Assembly: GCF_900108295.1 (NCBI RefSeq)
Contig: NZ_FNWK01000001.1
Coordinates: forward strand, 868,001-932,000
DNA length: 64,000 bases
Origin: Sphingopyxis sp. YR583
GTDB lineage: Bacteria; Pseudomonadota; Alphaproteobacteria; Sphingomonadales; Sphingomonadaceae
Reading direction: 5' to 3'
Under the pieces are notes generated by a model, which made no database searches, was not told the DNA's origin, and saw nothing but the letters and a program-made list of their open reading frames with translations. Positions 4,391 through 25,359 of this stretch are shown piece after piece. Numbering within the stretch: position 1 is the first letter of the stretch; each line of letters begins with the position of its first letter. Made by a program: the position numbers and the translations under genes.

Positions 4391-5938
4391 TTATGCGTCG
4401 CGCCAGCGCGCAGGCAGGGCGATTTCGACGATCAGCCCGCTCGGGTCCCACCGCCGTTCGACCGTCCCGCCAAGATTGTTCTTCACGCTGCGCTCCATCA
4501 GCAGCGTGCCGAAACTCGTATGCTCGGGCGCCACCACCTCGCGGGCGCCGCCGCTTTCGGCCCAGGTCAGGCGGAACATGCGGTCGTCGGCGCCCTCTTC
4601 TTCCTGCGTCCAGCTGACATCGACACGGCCATTTTCTCCGGTCAATGCGCCATGCTTGACGGCATTGGTCGCCAGTTCGTTGAACAGCAGCGCCATCGCG
4701 ACCAGAGCGTTTTCGGGCAGCAACAGGTCAGGCCCCGACCAGCGGATGCGCGGAAAGGCCGCCTCGACCTCGCGCATCAGTGCGTGCATCGATCCGGTCA
4801 TGAAGTTCGACCCGAGCAGGACATTCTGCGCGCGGTTCAGCGCGTCGAGGCGGCTGCTGATCCGTTCGACATAGTCGTCGACATCGCGCGCGGCATGACG
4901 GGTCAGCGAGATGATCGCGCTGACCGTCGCGAACAGATTGCGCATCCGGTGATGCAGTTCGCGCATCAGTAGATTGGCATTTTCCTGACGGCTTTTCTGT
5001 TCGGTGATGTCGATGCTCACCCCGGTCAGCATTGCCTCGTCCGAATGACCGACCCAGTCGCCGCGCACGGCGTTCCAGCGGACACCCCTTTCCGAATTGA
5101 GTACGCGATATTCGGCCGAATAAGGGGTGCGATTGGCGACTGTTTCTTCCAATAGGGTCCGCAGCGCCGCTCGATCGTCGGGATGCACGAGATCAAAAAA
5201 GCCGTTGCCCGTCGCCAGTGTCGCTTCGAAACCCGAACCCCAAAGTTCGGCTCCGGCGCCCTGCGTGCTCAGCCGATCGGCCTTCGGATCATATTGCCAG
5301 GTCGCTATCCCGGAAAAATCGAGAGCCCGCTCAAGTGTGCGGCGCGCGTCGTCGCGCTCGGCACCGATGCGGCGCAGATCGGCCTCGGCCATGATGATTC
5401 CGGCAAAATCCTCGAGCCGCGCCAGATCGACCTCGGTCAGCGCGGCCCGCTCCTTGCGGTCGAGGACGCAAAGGCTGCCGAGGATCGCGCCATTATGCGC
5501 GCGAAGGGGCACGCCTGCGTAGAAGCGGATATGAAAATCGCCGATGACGAGCGGATTATCACGCGAGCGGGGATCGGCCAGCGCGTCGATCACCATGACC
5601 GGCGCATCCTCCGCGATCACATACGGACAAAAACTGAAGTCGCGCGGCGTTTCGCGGGTTTCGATACCATGCGCCGACTTGAACCACTGACGTCGGTCGT
5701 CGACGAGCGATATCAGCGCGATCGGCATATCGAACAATTCGGCAACCATTCGCGTTACGCGGTCGAACGCCGCCTCGGGCGCGGTATCCATAATCCGATA
5801 CTCGCGAAGCGTGTCGAGCCGCAGCCGTTCGGCCGCGATTGCCGTGTCGTTGCCCCCGTCCGCCAAATTCCCTCCCTCGCTACGCTGCGATACCGGTGAC
5901 CCTGTATCGCTCGATTCCCCGGGGCGCCGCTCTGCCAT
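4391..5938 (-). CDS. GAF-PAS sensor histidine kinase, HWE type (candidate PhyR kinase)
   Basis: This soluble 515-aa kinase has a GAF domain (about 50-190), a PAS domain (about 200-315), and a dimerisation/phosphoacceptor segment with ELHHRMRNLFATV (His329/330). The ATPase domain has the HWE-family hallmarks: an N box containing a His (NELATNAVKHGAL) and a W-x-E motif (TWAESGG). HWE/HisKA_2 kinases are the usual phosphodonors of PhyR, and this gene is transcribed divergently from phyR, so it is a strong candidate PhyK. The ATG at 5938 is preferred over upstream codons because AGGGA lies about 10 nt before it. No membrane segment is visible, so the signal is probably cytoplasmic. Confidence 0.87.
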   Translation of the reverse strand: MAERRPGESSDTGSPVSQRSEGGNLADGGNDTAIAAERLRLDTLREYRIMDTAPEAAFDRVTRMVAELFDMPIALISLVDDRRQWFKSAHGIETRETPRDFSFCPYVIAEDAPVMVIDALADPRSRDNPLVIGDFHIRFYAGVPLRAHNGAILGSLCVLDRKERAALTEVDLARLEDFAGIIMAEADLRRIGAERDDARRTLERALDFSGIATWQYDPKADRLSTQGAGAELWGSGFEATLATGNGFFDLVHPDDRAALRTLLEETVANRTPYSAEYRVLNSERGVRWNAVRGDWVGHSDEAMLTGVSIDITEQKSRQENANLLMRELHHRMRNLFATVSAIISLTRHAARDVDDYVERISSRLDALNRAQNVLLGSNFMTGSMHALMREVEAAFPRIRWSGPDLLLPENALVAMALLFNELATNAVKHGALTGENGRVDVSWTQEEEGADDRMFRLTWAESGGAREVVAPEHTSFGTLLMERSVKNNLGGTVERRWDPSGLIVEIALPARWRDA

Positions 5939-6091
5939 GAATATGGTCCCTGTAAAAGCATACGCGCGGCGCAAAAGGAAAGTGGTTTTATTCCACTCAC
6001 TTACGCCGCTTCATCATCGCGTCCCGGCTGACTCTACGCTTTGATGCGCGACAAGTTGCAGTCATCAACGCGGCTTTCCGGTCGCCGCGCG

Positions 6092-6117: not shown

Positions 6118-6144
6118 TGACTGAACTCAAGAGGGAGCAATTTG

Positions 6145-6939
6145 ATGACATTGGGTGAGGAACTTCGCGGACATTTGCCCTTCCTGCGCCGCTATGCCCG
6201 GGCTTTGACGGGCAGCCAGCAGCATGGCGACAATTTCGTGCACACGACCCTCGAAGTCATCGTCGCGGCGCCCGATGAATTTCACAGCGGCGACGGCACG
6301 CGGATCGACCTCTACCGCAATTTTCACCGCATCTGGGAAAGCGCCTATATCGACGAGGGCGAAGACAGCGACGAAGGCGAACACCCGCTCGTCCGCGCGG
6401 CGCACCGGCGCCTTGTCCAGATCACACCGCTCGGACGACAGGTGTTGCTCCTCACCGCGCTCGAGGGCTTTTCGGTCGAGGAAGCCGGCTTGATTACGGG
6501 CACCGACAACCGGACGGTCGAAACCCTGCTCGCCGATGCGGTCGGCGAACTCGACCGCGAATCGCGCACCTCGGTGTTGATCATCGAGGACGAGCCGTTG
6601 ATCGCCATGGAGCTCGAACAGATCGTGCGCGATCTCGGCCACCGCGTCGCGGGAATCGCTACGACGCACGAGGATGCGGTCGCGGCATTCGAGGAGACCG
6701 ACGCCGGGCTCGTTCTCGCCGATATTCAACTCGCGGACGGATCGTCGGGGATCGATGCGGTTCAGGACATATTGGCGATCGCCCCGGTCCCCGCGATCTT
6801 CATCACCGCTTTTCCCGAACGGCTGCTGACCGGCGGCCGGGTCGAACCGACCTTCCTCATCTCGAAACCCTTTCGCGAGAATACGGTCCGCGCTGCGATC
6901 AGCCAGAGCCTGCTCTTCACGCCGCAACTCGCGGCGTAA
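6145..6939 (+). CDS. phyR: PhyR, general stress response regulator (copy 1)
   Basis: The 264-aa protein has the PhyR architecture: an ECF-sigma-like domain (about 1-130, with region 2-like LPFLRRYARALTG and region 4-like LTALEGFSVEEAG) and a C-terminal receiver (about 142-260). In the receiver the acidic pocket IEDE (147-150), phosphoacceptor D193 (VLADIQL), T221 and K241 are intact, together with the FITAFPERLLTG segment typical of PhyR. When phosphorylated, PhyR exposes the sigma-like domain and sequesters NepR, freeing EcfG. ATG 6145 is chosen because GAGGGAG precedes it by 8 nt. It lies divergent to a HWE kinase and 1.4 kb from nepR-ecfG. Confidence 0.95.
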   Translation: MTLGEELRGHLPFLRRYARALTGSQQHGDNFVHTTLEVIVAAPDEFHSGDGTRIDLYRNFHRIWESAYIDEGEDSDEGEHPLVRAAHRRLVQITPLGRQVLLLTALEGFSVEEAGLITGTDNRTVETLLADAVGELDRESRTSVLIIEDEPLIAMELEQIVRDLGHRVAGIATTHEDAVAAFEETDAGLVLADIQLADGSSGIDAVQDILAIAPVPAIFITAFPERLLTGGRVEPTFLISKPFRENTVRAAISQSLLFTPQLAA

Positions 6940-7024
6940 GACAGCTTATCCCGACGGCCGCAAGGTGCTGTAGGCATCAATCGTAACGAGAAAACGGACG
7001 AGGCGTGCGGTCCGAAAGTTCCGC

Positions 7025-7708
7025 TTAATCCGGTGACGGCCCGCCCCCGGTCAACTGGTCGACATTGTCCATGATCGTTCGAAACGCCTCGCTCGACGGG
7101 ATGGCGTCGGTGCTGCGCAGCGGCATTTCGCCGCTTTCCAAAATGGCCTGAAGCGCCGCCCGGCCGCGCGACACGCGGCTTTTCATCGTACCGACTGCGC
7201 AACCGCAAATCTCGGCGCCCTCTTCATAGGAGAGCTGCCCTGCGCCGATCAGCACCAGCGCCTCGCGCTGGTCGACGGGCAACAGCATCAGCGCCCGCTG
7301 TACGTCCGCCAGATGCAGGCTGTCGTCCTGATCGTCGGGCGCGACAAGCAAACGCTCGGCCGCCATTTCGTCATATTCCGCCGTGAATTTCTTGCGCCGC
7401 ATCTGCGACAGGAAACAGTTGCGCAGGATGACGAAGGCCCAGCTTTTCATGCTGGCCGGTCCGGGCACATATTGCGCGCGCGCCTTCCATGCCTTTAGCA
7501 TCGTTTCCTGCACCAGATCGTCGGCGAGGTCCGCATTGCCCGTCAGGCTGCGCCCGAACGCGCGCAGGTGCGGCAGCATCGCCGCCAATTCGCGCTTGAA
7601 GCTGGCATCGTCGAGCGGTTGGGGCGTTATATCGCTGATAAAAAGGCCTTTGTCTGGCAATGTTTCTTCATGTTCCAACCGGCTTAGCGTTTCGACCTTG
7701 CATTGCAA
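7025..7708 (-). CDS. EcfG-like ECF sigma factor (copy 2), downstream of BLUF gene
   Basis: The product of up to 227 aa has sigma region 2 (HLRAFGRSLTGNADLADDLVQE, abbreviated here) and region 4 (LSYEEGAEICGCAVGTMKSRV). It is closely similar along its whole length to the EcfG encoded 1 kb away, including the C-terminal IPSSEAF/PPSSEAV tail, so the two are paralogues. A stop lies in frame just upstream, so the longest form begins at TTG 7708; TTG codons a few residues later are alternatives, as the conserved core starts near residue 36. It follows the BLUF gene by 12 nt and is probably co-transcribed. No separate anti-sigma gene lies beside it. Confidence 0.88.
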   Translation of the reverse strand: MQCKVETLSRLEHEETLPDKGLFISDITPQPLDDASFKRELAAMLPHLRAFGRSLTGNADLADDLVQETMLKAWKARAQYVPGPASMKSWAFVILRNCFLSQMRRKKFTAEYDEMAAERLLVAPDDQDDSLHLADVQRALMLLPVDQREALVLIGAGQLSYEEGAEICGCAVGTMKSRVSRGRAALQAILESGEMPLRSTDAIPSSEAFRTIMDNVDQLTGGGPSPD

Positions 7709-7720
7709 GCGCGCCGCCGG

Positions 7721-8140
7721 TCACTCTACAAACGGGCGGCGGCCCAGTGCGATGAAATTGGCGAATATCTTTTCGTCTACGGCATCGATCCGGCCGTCGG
7801 CCGCGAGCCGCGACAGACCGTCGTCGCGCCATTCGAAACGCGGGTCATACAGCATCGCCCATTCGCCGAAGTCGCGTGCTTCGATCGTGCGGCGGCGCAC
7901 TTCGATCATGCCACTGTGCCGCGCGTCGTCGCGGATGACAGCAAGGCAGGCTTCGACCTTTTCGTCCGGCCCTTCCAGAAGTTGAAGGAAGTTATGCCCA
8001 TTATAGACGAGCGCGCCGGTCAGTTCGTCGCGCACATTGTTGCGGCGCGCCGACACCAGGATCGACGCAATTTCTTCGTCGCTGATCGACGGATCGGCGA
8101 CGCTCACATAGGTAACGGAAAGCAACTGGCCACCTCGCAT
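7721..8140 (-). CDS. BLUF-domain blue-light photoreceptor (short type)
   Basis: The 139-aa protein is a single BLUF domain (about 5-100) with a short C-terminal tail. Tyr11, Asn35 and Gln53 have the same spacing as Tyr21, Asn45 and Gln63 of AppA, the residues that hydrogen-bond around the flavin; the RNN...LTGAL..YNGHNFLQLLEG pattern is typical. It should bind FAD and report blue light to a partner protein, as short BLUF proteins lack an output domain. The ATG at 8140 gives the longest form; a TTG five codons later has a better-placed GAGGTGG. It is the first gene of a probable operon with an EcfG-like sigma factor and lies divergent from nepR-ecfG. Confidence 0.9.
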   Translation of the reverse strand: MRGGQLLSVTYVSVADPSISDEEIASILVSARRNNVRDELTGALVYNGHNFLQLLEGPDEKVEACLAVIRDDARHSGMIEVRRRTIEARDFGEWAMLYDPRFEWRDDGLSRLAADGRIDAVDEKIFANFIALGRRPFVE

Positions 8141-8242
8141 GCCCCGGACGCAGGCCGGGCAAAATGTGACCCCTCACAGGACATGGCTTACGGCCGGTGT
8201 GGTTTATTGGCAACGCATTCGTCGCAAAAAAACGGAATCCGT

Positions 8243-8267
8243 GGAACCAGCGGGCGCCTTCCTCGTT
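8243..8267 (+). promoter_or_regulatory. EcfG-type promoter of nepR-ecfG
   Basis: GGAAC (8243-8247), a 16-nt spacer and CGTT (8264-8267) match the EcfG consensus exactly. Transcription would start near 8274, which supports the ATG at 8300 as the nepR start and implies autoregulation of the operon. Confidence 0.85.
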
Positions 8268-8299
8268 GCTCCCGCATGGCTACGCAAGGCAACAACAGG

Positions 8300-8530
8300 A
8301 TGAACGGCAAGGCCCCGCCGCCCCTGGGCGCCGATACGCCGCGCCGAACGGAGGGAAGCTTTCCCGGTACGAACGGCGACGAGTGGCATCGCACGCTTAC
8401 GGGACGGCAGGCACCCGAGCCGGTGAGCGCGAAGCTGCGCATGATTTACGGCAATGTCGTTGCCGAAAAACTGCCCGACAACATGCTCGATCTTCTTTCC
8501 CGGCTCGATCAGAAAAGTCCGAAGCCATAA
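8300..8530 (+). CDS. nepR: NepR, anti-sigma factor of EcfG (copy 1)
   Basis: This small protein (76 aa from ATG 8300) carries the NepR core KLRMIYGNVVAEKLPDNMLDLL near its C-terminus, matching the two-helix consensus that clamps EcfG or PhyR. The N-terminus is polar and probably disordered. ATG 8300 with AAGG 10 nt upstream is preferred; ATG 8276 would sit at the predicted transcription start. Its stop overlaps the ecfG start (TAATG, 8528-8532), so the two are translationally coupled. It probably holds EcfG inactive until PhyR is phosphorylated. Confidence 0.92.
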   Translation: MNGKAPPPLGADTPRRTEGSFPGTNGDEWHRTLTGRQAPEPVSAKLRMIYGNVVAEKLPDNMLDLLSRLDQKSPKP

Positions 8531-9165
8531 TGACCGGAACCACCGCCGCTGCTTCGCAGCCGCAGGCCGAAACCCTGTCCGACAGCGAATTCAAGACGCT
8601 GCTCGCCGGTGTCATCCCCCATCTGCGCGCCTATGGCCGCAGCCTGTCGGGCAATCCCGATCTCGCCGACGATCTGACGCAGGACACGATGGTCAAGGCA
8701 TGGGCGTCGCGCGAACGGTTCGAACGCGGCACGTCGATCAAGGCTTGGACCTTCGTCATCCTTCGCAACACCTTCCTGTCGCAGATGCGCCGCAACAAGT
8801 TCGTCGGCGAATATGACGAGACCGCGGTCGAGCGCACCATGTCGACCCCGGCCAGTCAGGAAGACAGCGGCGAGATGGCCGACCTCCAGCGCGGCCTGAT
8901 GGAATTGCCGCAGGACCAGCGCGAGGCATTGATCCTCGTCGGCGCAGGCGGCCTGTCCTACGAAGAAGCCGCCAGCATCTGCGATTGCGCGCTCGGCACG
9001 ATGAAGAGCCGCGTCTCGCGTGCTCGCGCCGCGCTCGAGGATATCATGAATAGCGGCCAATTTTCCCAGAAACGTGCCGACGCTCCGCCATCGAGCGAGG
9101 CGGTCGACGCAATCATGGACAGCGTCGAGACGATCACCGCGCGGCGCGAGGCGGCGAACCGTTAA
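8530..9165 (+). CDS. ecfG: EcfG, general stress ECF sigma factor (copy 1)
   Basis: The 211-aa sigma factor has region 2 (HLRAYGRSLSGNPDLADDL), a region 2.4-like RNTFLSQMRRNKFVGEY, and region 4 with YEEAASICDCALGTMKSRV. Its position directly after nepR behind a consensus EcfG promoter identifies it as the GSR sigma factor. ATG at 8530 overlaps the nepR stop. It directs RNA polymerase to GGAAC-N16/17-CGTT promoters, of which this window shows several. It is closely related to the sigma factor encoded at 7025-7708. Confidence 0.94.
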   Translation: MTGTTAAASQPQAETLSDSEFKTLLAGVIPHLRAYGRSLSGNPDLADDLTQDTMVKAWASRERFERGTSIKAWTFVILRNTFLSQMRRNKFVGEYDETAVERTMSTPASQEDSGEMADLQRGLMELPQDQREALILVGAGGLSYEEAASICDCALGTMKSRVSRARAALEDIMNSGQFSQKRADAPPSSEAVDAIMDSVETITARREAANR

Positions 9166-24186: not shown

Positions 24187-24978
24187 TCAGGCCGGGATCG
24201 TGCTTTCGTCGAAGAACAGCACCTGCGAAATGGCGGCGCGCAACGTCGCGGGCTGGTACGGCTTGGTGAGCAGGAATGCGGGCTCCGGCCGGTCGCCGGT
24301 CAGCAACCGTTCGGGAAAAGCGGTGATGAAGATGACCGGCACCTTGAGGTCGGTCAGAATTTCCTGCACCGCCTCGATTCCCGAACTGTTGTCGGCGAGC
24401 TGAATATCGGCGAGCACAAGGCCGGGCTGGTGCTTCTGCGCCTCGTCGACCGCTTCGCGGTGCGTCGTCGCGACGCCGACGACATCGTGGCCCAGTTCGC
24501 GAACAATCATTTCGATATCCATCGCGATGATCGGTTCATCCTCGATGATCAAAATGCGTGCGCGGGTCTGGCGATCGATCTCGTCGGTTGCATCGGCGAT
24601 CAGGCCGCGCACCGCCTCGGCATCGCGGCCTATGATGCGGCCGGTATCTTCGACGCTAAAACCCTCGACGGCGGTAAGAAGCAAAGCCTGCCGCGCGAGC
24701 GACGGAATGCGGCGCAGGCGGGCGTCGGCGATCGCGATGTCGCTCGACGGTGCTTCGCCACCCGCCGCCTGCTCGGTCATCAGGCCGAAATTGTCGTGGA
24801 CCATCCGGTACAGCTGGATGCGGAGGTCGGCGCCGACATCGACTGCGCCGGGGTTCGCGACCAATGTCTCGAGCAACCGCGCGACCAACGCGTCACCGCT
24901 TGGCTGGCTACCAGAGATGGATCGGCCATACCGCCGCAGATAGGGAAGATGCGGCGCAACCGACTGACCCAATGACAT
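24187..24978 (-). CDS. PhyR-like response regulator (copy 2)
   Basis: The 263-aa protein has the same architecture as PhyR1: an ECF-sigma-like domain (HLPYLRRYGRSISG; LTAVEGFSVEDTG) and a receiver with IEDE, D191, T219 and K239 plus the same FITAFPERLLTG tract. The receivers are much more alike than the sigma-like domains, which suggests that copy 2 may bind a different NepR. A short NepR gene lies divergently 210 nt away, behind an EcfG-like box. No kinase gene is adjacent. I saw no GGAAC box on its own strand in the intergenic region. Confidence 0.92.
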   Translation of the reverse strand: MSLGQSVAPHLPYLRRYGRSISGSQPSGDALVARLLETLVANPGAVDVGADLRIQLYRMVHDNFGLMTEQAAGGEAPSSDIAIADARLRRIPSLARQALLLTAVEGFSVEDTGRIIGRDAEAVRGLIADATDEIDRQTRARILIIEDEPIIAMDIEMIVRELGHDVVGVATTHREAVDEAQKHQPGLVLADIQLADNSSGIEAVQEILTDLKVPVIFITAFPERLLTGDRPEPAFLLTKPYQPATLRAAISQVLFFDESTIPA

Positions 24979-25188: not shown

Positions 25189-25359
25189 ATGTCGTCTAAA
25201 ACCGGTTCGCCGCGCAGCGAGACCTCCGGAAAGGACGCGGATAAAAAACCTTCCGCCAAGGGGCAGGACGTCAACGGCGCCCTGCGCCGCGCGTATGAAT
25301 CCACCGTCGACGAAGATATTCCCCAGTCGCTGCTCGATCTGCTCGGCAAGCTCGACTGA
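25189..25359 (+). CDS. short NepR-like anti-sigma factor (copy 2)
   Basis: This 56-aa reading frame ends with the NepR core LRRAYESTVDEDIPQSLLDLL, aligning with LRMIYGNVVAEKLPDNMLDLL of NepR1. The N-terminal 26 residues are Lys/Ser-rich and probably disordered. It is small enough to be missed by gene callers. It is divergent from phyR2, repeating the phyR-nepR pairing seen 17 kb away, and is preceded by an EcfG-like box. The ribosome-binding site is weak (GCGGATG). The stop is 2 nt from the convergent tgt gene. It probably binds one of the EcfG-like sigma factors and PhyR2. Confidence 0.85.
   Translation: MSSKTGSPRSETSGKDADKKPSAKGQDVNGALRRAYESTVDEDIPQSLLDLLGKLD

What the first reader, a model, noticed from the sequence alone, without database searches (positions are those of the whole stretch)
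7025..8140. BLUF blue-light receptor gene in an apparent operon with an EcfG-like sigma factor
A short BLUF protein with Tyr/Asn/Gln at the AppA spacing is encoded 12 nt before a second EcfG-like gene and opposite nepR-ecfG. LOV kinases are known light inputs to the GSR in some alphaproteobacteria, but a BLUF-sigma operon would be a different route. The BLUF protein may bind the sigma factor, a NepR or the PhyR pathway.
Basis: partly seen in the sequence, partly recalled or inferred. Interest (0 to 1): 0.85.

Follow-up and report, generated by a model that had tools for sequence, protein, structure and literature searches.

The report
Blue-light sensor inside stress-switch gene cluster
In Sphingopyxis bacteria a small blue-light sensor gene often sits inside the gene cluster that controls the general stress response, next to its master switch; many species keep it and others have lost it, so light is a plausible but unproven extra input to that response.

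Summary
The window (a Sphingopyxis-like genome) has a short BLUF gene with the flavin-site residues, directly upstream of ecfG2 and divergent from nepR-ecfG1, near phyR and an HWE kinase. The "12 nt operon" is wrong: the TTG taken as the ecfG2 start is the -35 box of a conserved promoter, and ecfG2 most likely starts at an AUC codon 81 nt after the BLUF stop. The linkage is conserved: of 80 genomes of the genus 49 have a BLUF, and in 46 of these it lies directly upstream of an EcfG gene on the same strand. The BLUF is under purifying selection. It has been lost more than once; five BLUF-less loci keep scars. Outside the genus, among 263 locus records examined, one genome (two records) has a BLUF beside nepR-ecfG and phyR. 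No paper in the held library joins BLUF with EcfG. Best reading: an accessory, PixD-like blue-light modulator of the EcfG/NepR/PhyR switch. Its target and any effect of light are untested; an unlinked target or hitchhiking remain possible.

The parts
   Evidence: PF04940 E 8.8e-27; start by comparison with 35 distinct genus BLUFs
7025..7639 (-). ecfG2, EcfG-type ECF sigma factor, likely AUC start at 7639
   Evidence: start:
7681..7708 (-). promoter P2 of ecfG2, TTGCAA-N16-TAAGCC; its -35 was read as the ecfG2 start codon
   Evidence: pattern in 35 of 36 BLUF+ and 14 of 28 BLUF- loci, about 0.1 in shuffles
7647..7651 (-). AAAGG, ribosome-binding-like site 7 nt before the AUC
   Evidence: AAAGG or one base off in most of the 32 AUC/AUU loci of equal spacing
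8185..8213 (-). putative promoter P1 upstream of BLUF, TTGCCA-N17-TAAGCC
   Evidence: pattern in 25 of 35 BLUF+ loci, 0.42 in shuffles
8243..8267 (+). EcfG-type promoter GGAAC-N16-CGTT of nepR-ecfG1
   Evidence: found on the nepR strand of each locus listed (duplicates included); none on the BLUF strand
8276..8530 (+). nepR (like TFA nepR2), overlaps ecfG1 by 1 nt
   Evidence: PF18557
8530..9165 (+). ecfG1
6142..6939 (+). phyR, convergent with ecfG2
   Evidence: PhyR_sigma2, Response_reg; NF006623 over cut-off
4391..5974 (-). GAF-PAS-HWE histidine kinase, divergent from phyR
24187..24978 (-). second phyR
25189..25359 (+). second nepR, divergent from the second phyR

Best explanation
The gene encodes a short, PixD/BlrB-like BLUF photoreceptor that serves as an accessory blue-light input to the general stress response. 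It is transcribed from its own promoter (P1) and may read through into ecfG2, which has its own promoter (P2). Under blue light the protein changes conformation and alters, by direct contact, the EcfG2/NepR/PhyR partner switch. Shown here: the gene, its fold family, its flavin-site residues, its conserved place and its purifying selection. Inferred: photochemistry from residues; contact and its sign (activation or inhibition) from gene position only.
For: BLUF domain and fold, flavin-site residues. One BLUF in the genome. No match to the LOV histidine kinase model at the strict cut E<=1e-40 in the own genome; 10 of 80 genus genomes have one, none over the curated cut-off. Same slot and strand in 46 of the 49 BLUF-bearing genus genomes. 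dN/dS 0.05-0.25 in 13 pairs. One different BLUF-GSR arrangement elsewhere; that BLUF is also the best non-genus match to the genus profile, by a small margin (106.6 against 101.9 bits). In S. granuli TFA ecfG2 is expressed constitutively and is the main switch (PMC7083833, passages), so a post-translational input would make sense.
Against: BLUF comes and goes while ecfG2 stays (12 changes by parsimony, at least 5 forced by starred branches; scars). P2 means no strict co-expression. No EcfG-type promoter on the BLUF strand. Of 263 non-genus locus records (duplicates included) 261 show no EcfG-PhyR pair near the BLUF within the DNA held; the other two, L059 and L113, are one genome. The trees do not join that BLUF with the genus clade. 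No interaction or light data.
Confidence: 0.4

Rival explanations
1. The BLUF protein is functional but acts on a target outside the GSR (for example a second-messenger enzyme or an adhesion or motility regulator), and only shares a neighbourhood with ecfG2.
For: Short BLUFs elsewhere act on partners encoded away from them or on non-GSR targets (recalled, no call). BLUF has a putative promoter of its own and no EcfG-type promoter on its strand; the GSR locus exists without it.
Against: Place beside ecfG2 kept across the genus tree; a second, differently arranged BLUF-GSR linkage.
Confidence: 0.35
2. Hitchhiking: BLUF entered this intergenic slot in an ancestor of the genus and stays there only by vertical inheritance, without functional link.
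For: The linkage is almost confined to one genus. Repeated absence. A single outside case among a few hundred BLUF loci could be chance (my estimate, not computed in a call).
Against: The BLUF itself is under purifying selection and has not moved from the slot in 46 of 49 BLUF-bearing genomes, although it has diverged widely (58-86% identity to the window's BLUF among 29 named loci with an unbroken gene).
Confidence: 0.22
3. Coupling in cis: read-through from P1 across BLUF sets the EcfG2 level, and the BLUF protein is secondary.
For: Same strand, 81-nt gap, no minus-strand terminator-like site listed; P1-side sequence kept in four BLUF-less loci with scars (L341, L342, L343, L345).
Against: Purifying selection on the BLUF protein and intact flavin-site residues; P2; ecfG2 constitutive in TFA, which has no BLUF reported there.
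Confidence: 0.03

Closest known systems
Sphingopyxis granuli TFA GSR locus (nepR2-ecfG1 / ecfG2 / phyR2 / HWE kinase; PMC7083833)
   Same: Same gene order, ecfG2 divergent, EcfG-type promoter GGAAC-N16-CGTT before nepR2, a second nepR divergent from a second phyR
   Different: TFA ecfG1, nepR2 and ecfG2 bear consecutive locus tags (SGRAN_1161-1163) and the word BLUF does not occur in the paper's main text; here a BLUF sits between
PixD (Tll0078, Slr1694) and BlrB short BLUF proteins
   Same: Stand-alone BLUF domain with C-terminal helices; among the best sequence and fold matches
   Different: About 25-34% identity in the fold search; partner here unknown, PixE not searched for
LOV histidine kinases acting on the alphaproteobacterial GSR (e.g. 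Brucella LOVHK, PMC4438053; search listing with abstract start only)
   Same: Blue-light receptor with an effect on the PhyR-NepR-EcfG response
   Different: A kinase there; here a kinase-free BLUF encoded beside the sigma factor
Bacillus subtilis YtvA, stressosome and sigmaB (PMC4844311, passages)
   Same: A flavin blue-light receptor feeding a general stress sigma factor through protein contacts
   Different: LOV, not BLUF; other sigma and switch families

Membership tests
BLUF photoreceptors (PF04940) | BLUF domain over the curated cut-off | tested here: met
   93.5 bits, cut-off 25
BLUF photoreceptors (PF04940) | conserved Tyr, Asn, Gln, Met of the flavin site (positions recalled from AppA) | tested here: met
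   35 of 35 distinct genus BLUFs, window included
BLUF photoreceptors (PF04940) | binds FAD and red-shifts in light | not testable with these tools
   needs purified protein
PixD-type short BLUF | stand-alone BLUF with C-terminal helices | tested here: met
   134 aa; model helices 102-109 and 115-127, mean pLDDT 79.5 but 53-62 in residues 81-100; top PDB matches AppA BLUF, then Tll0078 and Slr1694, TM-score 0.65-0.70
PixD-type short BLUF | PixE-like partner in the genome | not tested
   no search made
EcfG (ECF15) sigma factors | sigma2 and sigma4 regions, EcfG-like sequence | tested here: met
   61% identical to ecfG1, next match in the genome 30%; the ECF classifier was not run
EcfG (ECF15) sigma factors | encoded with nepR and phyR | tested here: met
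Light input to the GSR | light changes GSR output through this receptor | not testable with these tools
   reporter experiment needed

The most novel reading that the evidence does not exclude
A kinase-independent blue-light route into the alphaproteobacterial general stress response: a stand-alone BLUF protein directly gates the EcfG2-NepR-PhyR partner switch, feeding a master sigma factor whose synthesis is itself held low by a non-canonical AUC start codon.
Probability: 0.25. Interest if true: 0.8.

Novelty: new variant of a known kind. Interest (0 to 1): 0.6.

Why it matters
The light inputs to the alphaproteobacterial stress response that I know of (recalled; listing) are LOV histidine kinases. 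A BLUF protein encoded beside the master sigma factor would be a second, kinase-free route, testable at once with the kind of reporters already used in Sphingopyxis and with natural BLUF+ and BLUF- species. The conserved AUC start of ecfG2 would make a master stress sigma factor one of very few bacterial genes known (recalled) to start at such a codon.

Tried and rejected
Tight operon with a 12-nt gap: rejected; the supposed ecfG2 start is a promoter box. Orthology of the outside BLUF (L113) with the genus BLUFs: open. Two trees, each of a part of the 353 BLUF-matching frames (107 rows, 60 rows), keep the genus BLUFs together (support 93) and do not join L113 to them; the AU test does not reject joining (p 0.289). 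The NF.ALG tail is shared by 64 of 66 genus frames (the two without are the pieces of broken L111) and, of 287 others, only by L059/L113 (one genome), but similar tails (NFAVLN, NFAALN) occur in other short BLUFs. LOV kinases as the light input instead: no match at E<=1e-40 in the own genome. Promoter consensus scan: 0 sigma-70-like sites in 6900-8600, so P1 and P2 rest on conservation alone. Literature: BLUF+EcfG (0 papers), BLUF+general stress response+sigma factor (19 papers, listing only, plus passages of one), BLUF+Sphingo+NepR, BLUF+PhyR (8 papers, listing only; no title or abstract start on this pairing), Sphingopyxis+blue light+BLUF, start-codon searches (listings, nothing on this gene seen).

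Full report
What is there. One BLUF match is found in the genome. Of eight matches to ecfG1 in the genome, two are strong: ecfG1 itself and ecfG2 (61%); the next is 30%. A second phyR/nepR pair lies at 24.2-25.4 kb of the same window. This is the gene order described for Sphingopyxis granuli TFA, where ecfG2 is expressed constitutively and EcfG2 is the main switch. There ecfG1, nepR2 and ecfG2 carry consecutive locus tags, and the word BLUF does not occur in the main text (PMC7083833; first of eight parts and found passages seen). That the window is a Sphingopyxis is my inference from its nearest named relatives.

Is the pairing conserved? Of 80 genomes of the genus 49 have a BLUF match. In 46 of the 49 a BLUF lies within 1.5 kb upstream of an EcfG gene on the same strand (from the listed rows; one search did not list its weakest rows). 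The other three are G012, G025 and G074. In 28 genomes without such a BLUF the divergent EcfG pair remains with a shorter gap (450-649 nt between matches, against 838-1094 in the 45 BLUF-bearing genomes where both were listed). Among 80 loci fetched from named genomes, the first 30 (L082-L111; 27 titled Sphingopyxis) show ecfG1, nepR, BLUF and ecfG2 in this order. phyR is not seen in the DNA held for L104, L107 and L108. In L111 the BLUF frame is broken into two pieces.

Outside the genus. I examined 263 locus records around other BLUF matches (family, class and GTDB; some BLUFs occur twice; flanks about 1.5 kb for L022-L051 and L059-L081, up to 5-6 kb for the rest, less at contig ends). EcfG and PhyR lie beside a BLUF in two records, L059 and L113, which are one genome: BLUF, nepR and ecfG on one strand, phyR opposite. 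One more record, L265, has a partial, weak sigma-factor match (37%) 2.5 kb from its BLUF. The survey is incomplete: one search did not list all matches; seven of its weakest listed rows and ten weak or family rows were not fetched. A second EcfG gene is itself rare outside the genus: 3 of the 136 non-genus genomes (G080, G091, G173) have two matches at E<=1e-35.

History. A tree of EcfG2+EcfG1+PhyR for 63 distinct loci (35 BLUF+, 28 BLUF-) needs 12 changes of BLUF presence, of which at least 5 are forced by starred branches (quick tree, 22 of 60 inner branches weak). Five BLUF-less loci (L341, L342, L343, L345, L349; L341 and L345 are sisters in the tree) match BLUF ends and the flanking promoter DNA at nucleotide level; at protein level only L349 is clear (E 2.5e-7), so the BLUF part of the other four is short. 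These are losses; for the other BLUF-less loci no remnant was found. BLUF is under purifying selection (dN/dS 0.05-0.25 in 13 chosen pairs; ecfG2 0.01-0.09 in 12 of them, and 0.9 in the pair with the frame-shifted ecfG2 of L021). Y, N, Q and M of the flavin site are invariant in 35 of 35; W in 27, F in 8.

Promoters and starts. Upstream of ecfG2 the pattern TTGC[ACT][ACT]-N14-19-TAAG occurs in 35 of 36 BLUF+ and 14 of 28 BLUF- loci (shuffles about 0.1); of the 14 misses ten share the -10 but not the -35, three have a shorter spacer, and L344 has neither. Downstream, 25 of 64 loci have no ATG, GTG or TTG between the -10 (or last in-frame stop) and the conserved coding sequence; six of these 25 have an in-frame CTG. 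By a hand-made rule the start position holds ATC in 39 and ATT in 1 of 64 loci, ATG or GTG in 24; 15 of the 40 ATC/ATT loci also have some in-frame ATG, GTG or TTG nearby, the window among them (TTG 7678 and 7660). In the 32 ATC/ATT loci of equal spacing the codon is ATC in 31, preceded by a mostly conserved AAAGG ending 7 nt upstream. Codon-position bias is absent before it and appears only from about the fifth codon after it, so a start a few codons further in is not excluded by that measure, but no start codon there is conserved. P1 (TTGCC-N16-19-TA[A/T]) is seen in 25 of 35 BLUF+ loci; nine of the ten misses lie in one 13-row clade, the tenth is L012. The nepR promoter GGAAC-N-CGTT is present in each locus listed (N16; N17 in L338 and L339).

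Mechanism. The BLUF protein is predicted to fold like the AppA BLUF domain and PixD proteins (model mean pLDDT 79.5, weak in residues 81-100). By analogy with PixD and AppA (recalled) it should act by light-dependent protein contact. Its place beside the main stress sigma factor and anti-sigma factor makes the EcfG2/NepR/PhyR switch the likeliest target, but nothing here tests that. Its absence from many species says that it is an accessory input.

Known or new. No paper in the held library has both BLUF and EcfG or BLUF, Sphingo- and NepR. Blue light reaching stress sigma factors through LOV proteins is known (PMC4438053, listing only; YtvA, passages of PMC4844311). So: a new variant of a known kind, with the AUC start of ecfG2 as a separate oddity with stronger comparative support.

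Noticed in passing
window 7637-7639 (-): ecfG2 most likely starts at AUC; 39 ATC and 1 ATT of 64 genus loci by a hand-made rule, 25 of 64 without any ATG/GTG/TTG option, with a mostly conserved AAAGG upstream. A rare start codon for a master stress sigma factor.
   Followed up: partly
window 8215-8232 (-): A conserved T-rich stretch (like TTTTTTGCGACGAA) between the BLUF and nepR promoters, seen in similar form in a number of BLUF-less loci; function unknown.
   Followed up: no
L298:2864-5474: In an alphaproteobacterium of another family a kinase similar to the window's HWE kinase (35%), a single receiver and a short BLUF are encoded in a row; another possible BLUF link to HWE signalling. Domains by similarity only.
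   Followed up: partly
L021 (ecfG2) and L111 (BLUF): Frame breaks in single genomes: ecfG2 of L021 and BLUF of L111 each fall into two pieces; sequencing errors or decay.
   Followed up: no
L349: Decayed remnant of the BLUF 3' end upstream of ecfG2; stretch with P2 82% identical to the window over 218 nt.
   Followed up: yes
L116, L122, L123 and other Erythrobacter-group loci: Two BLUF matches in tandem.
   Followed up: no
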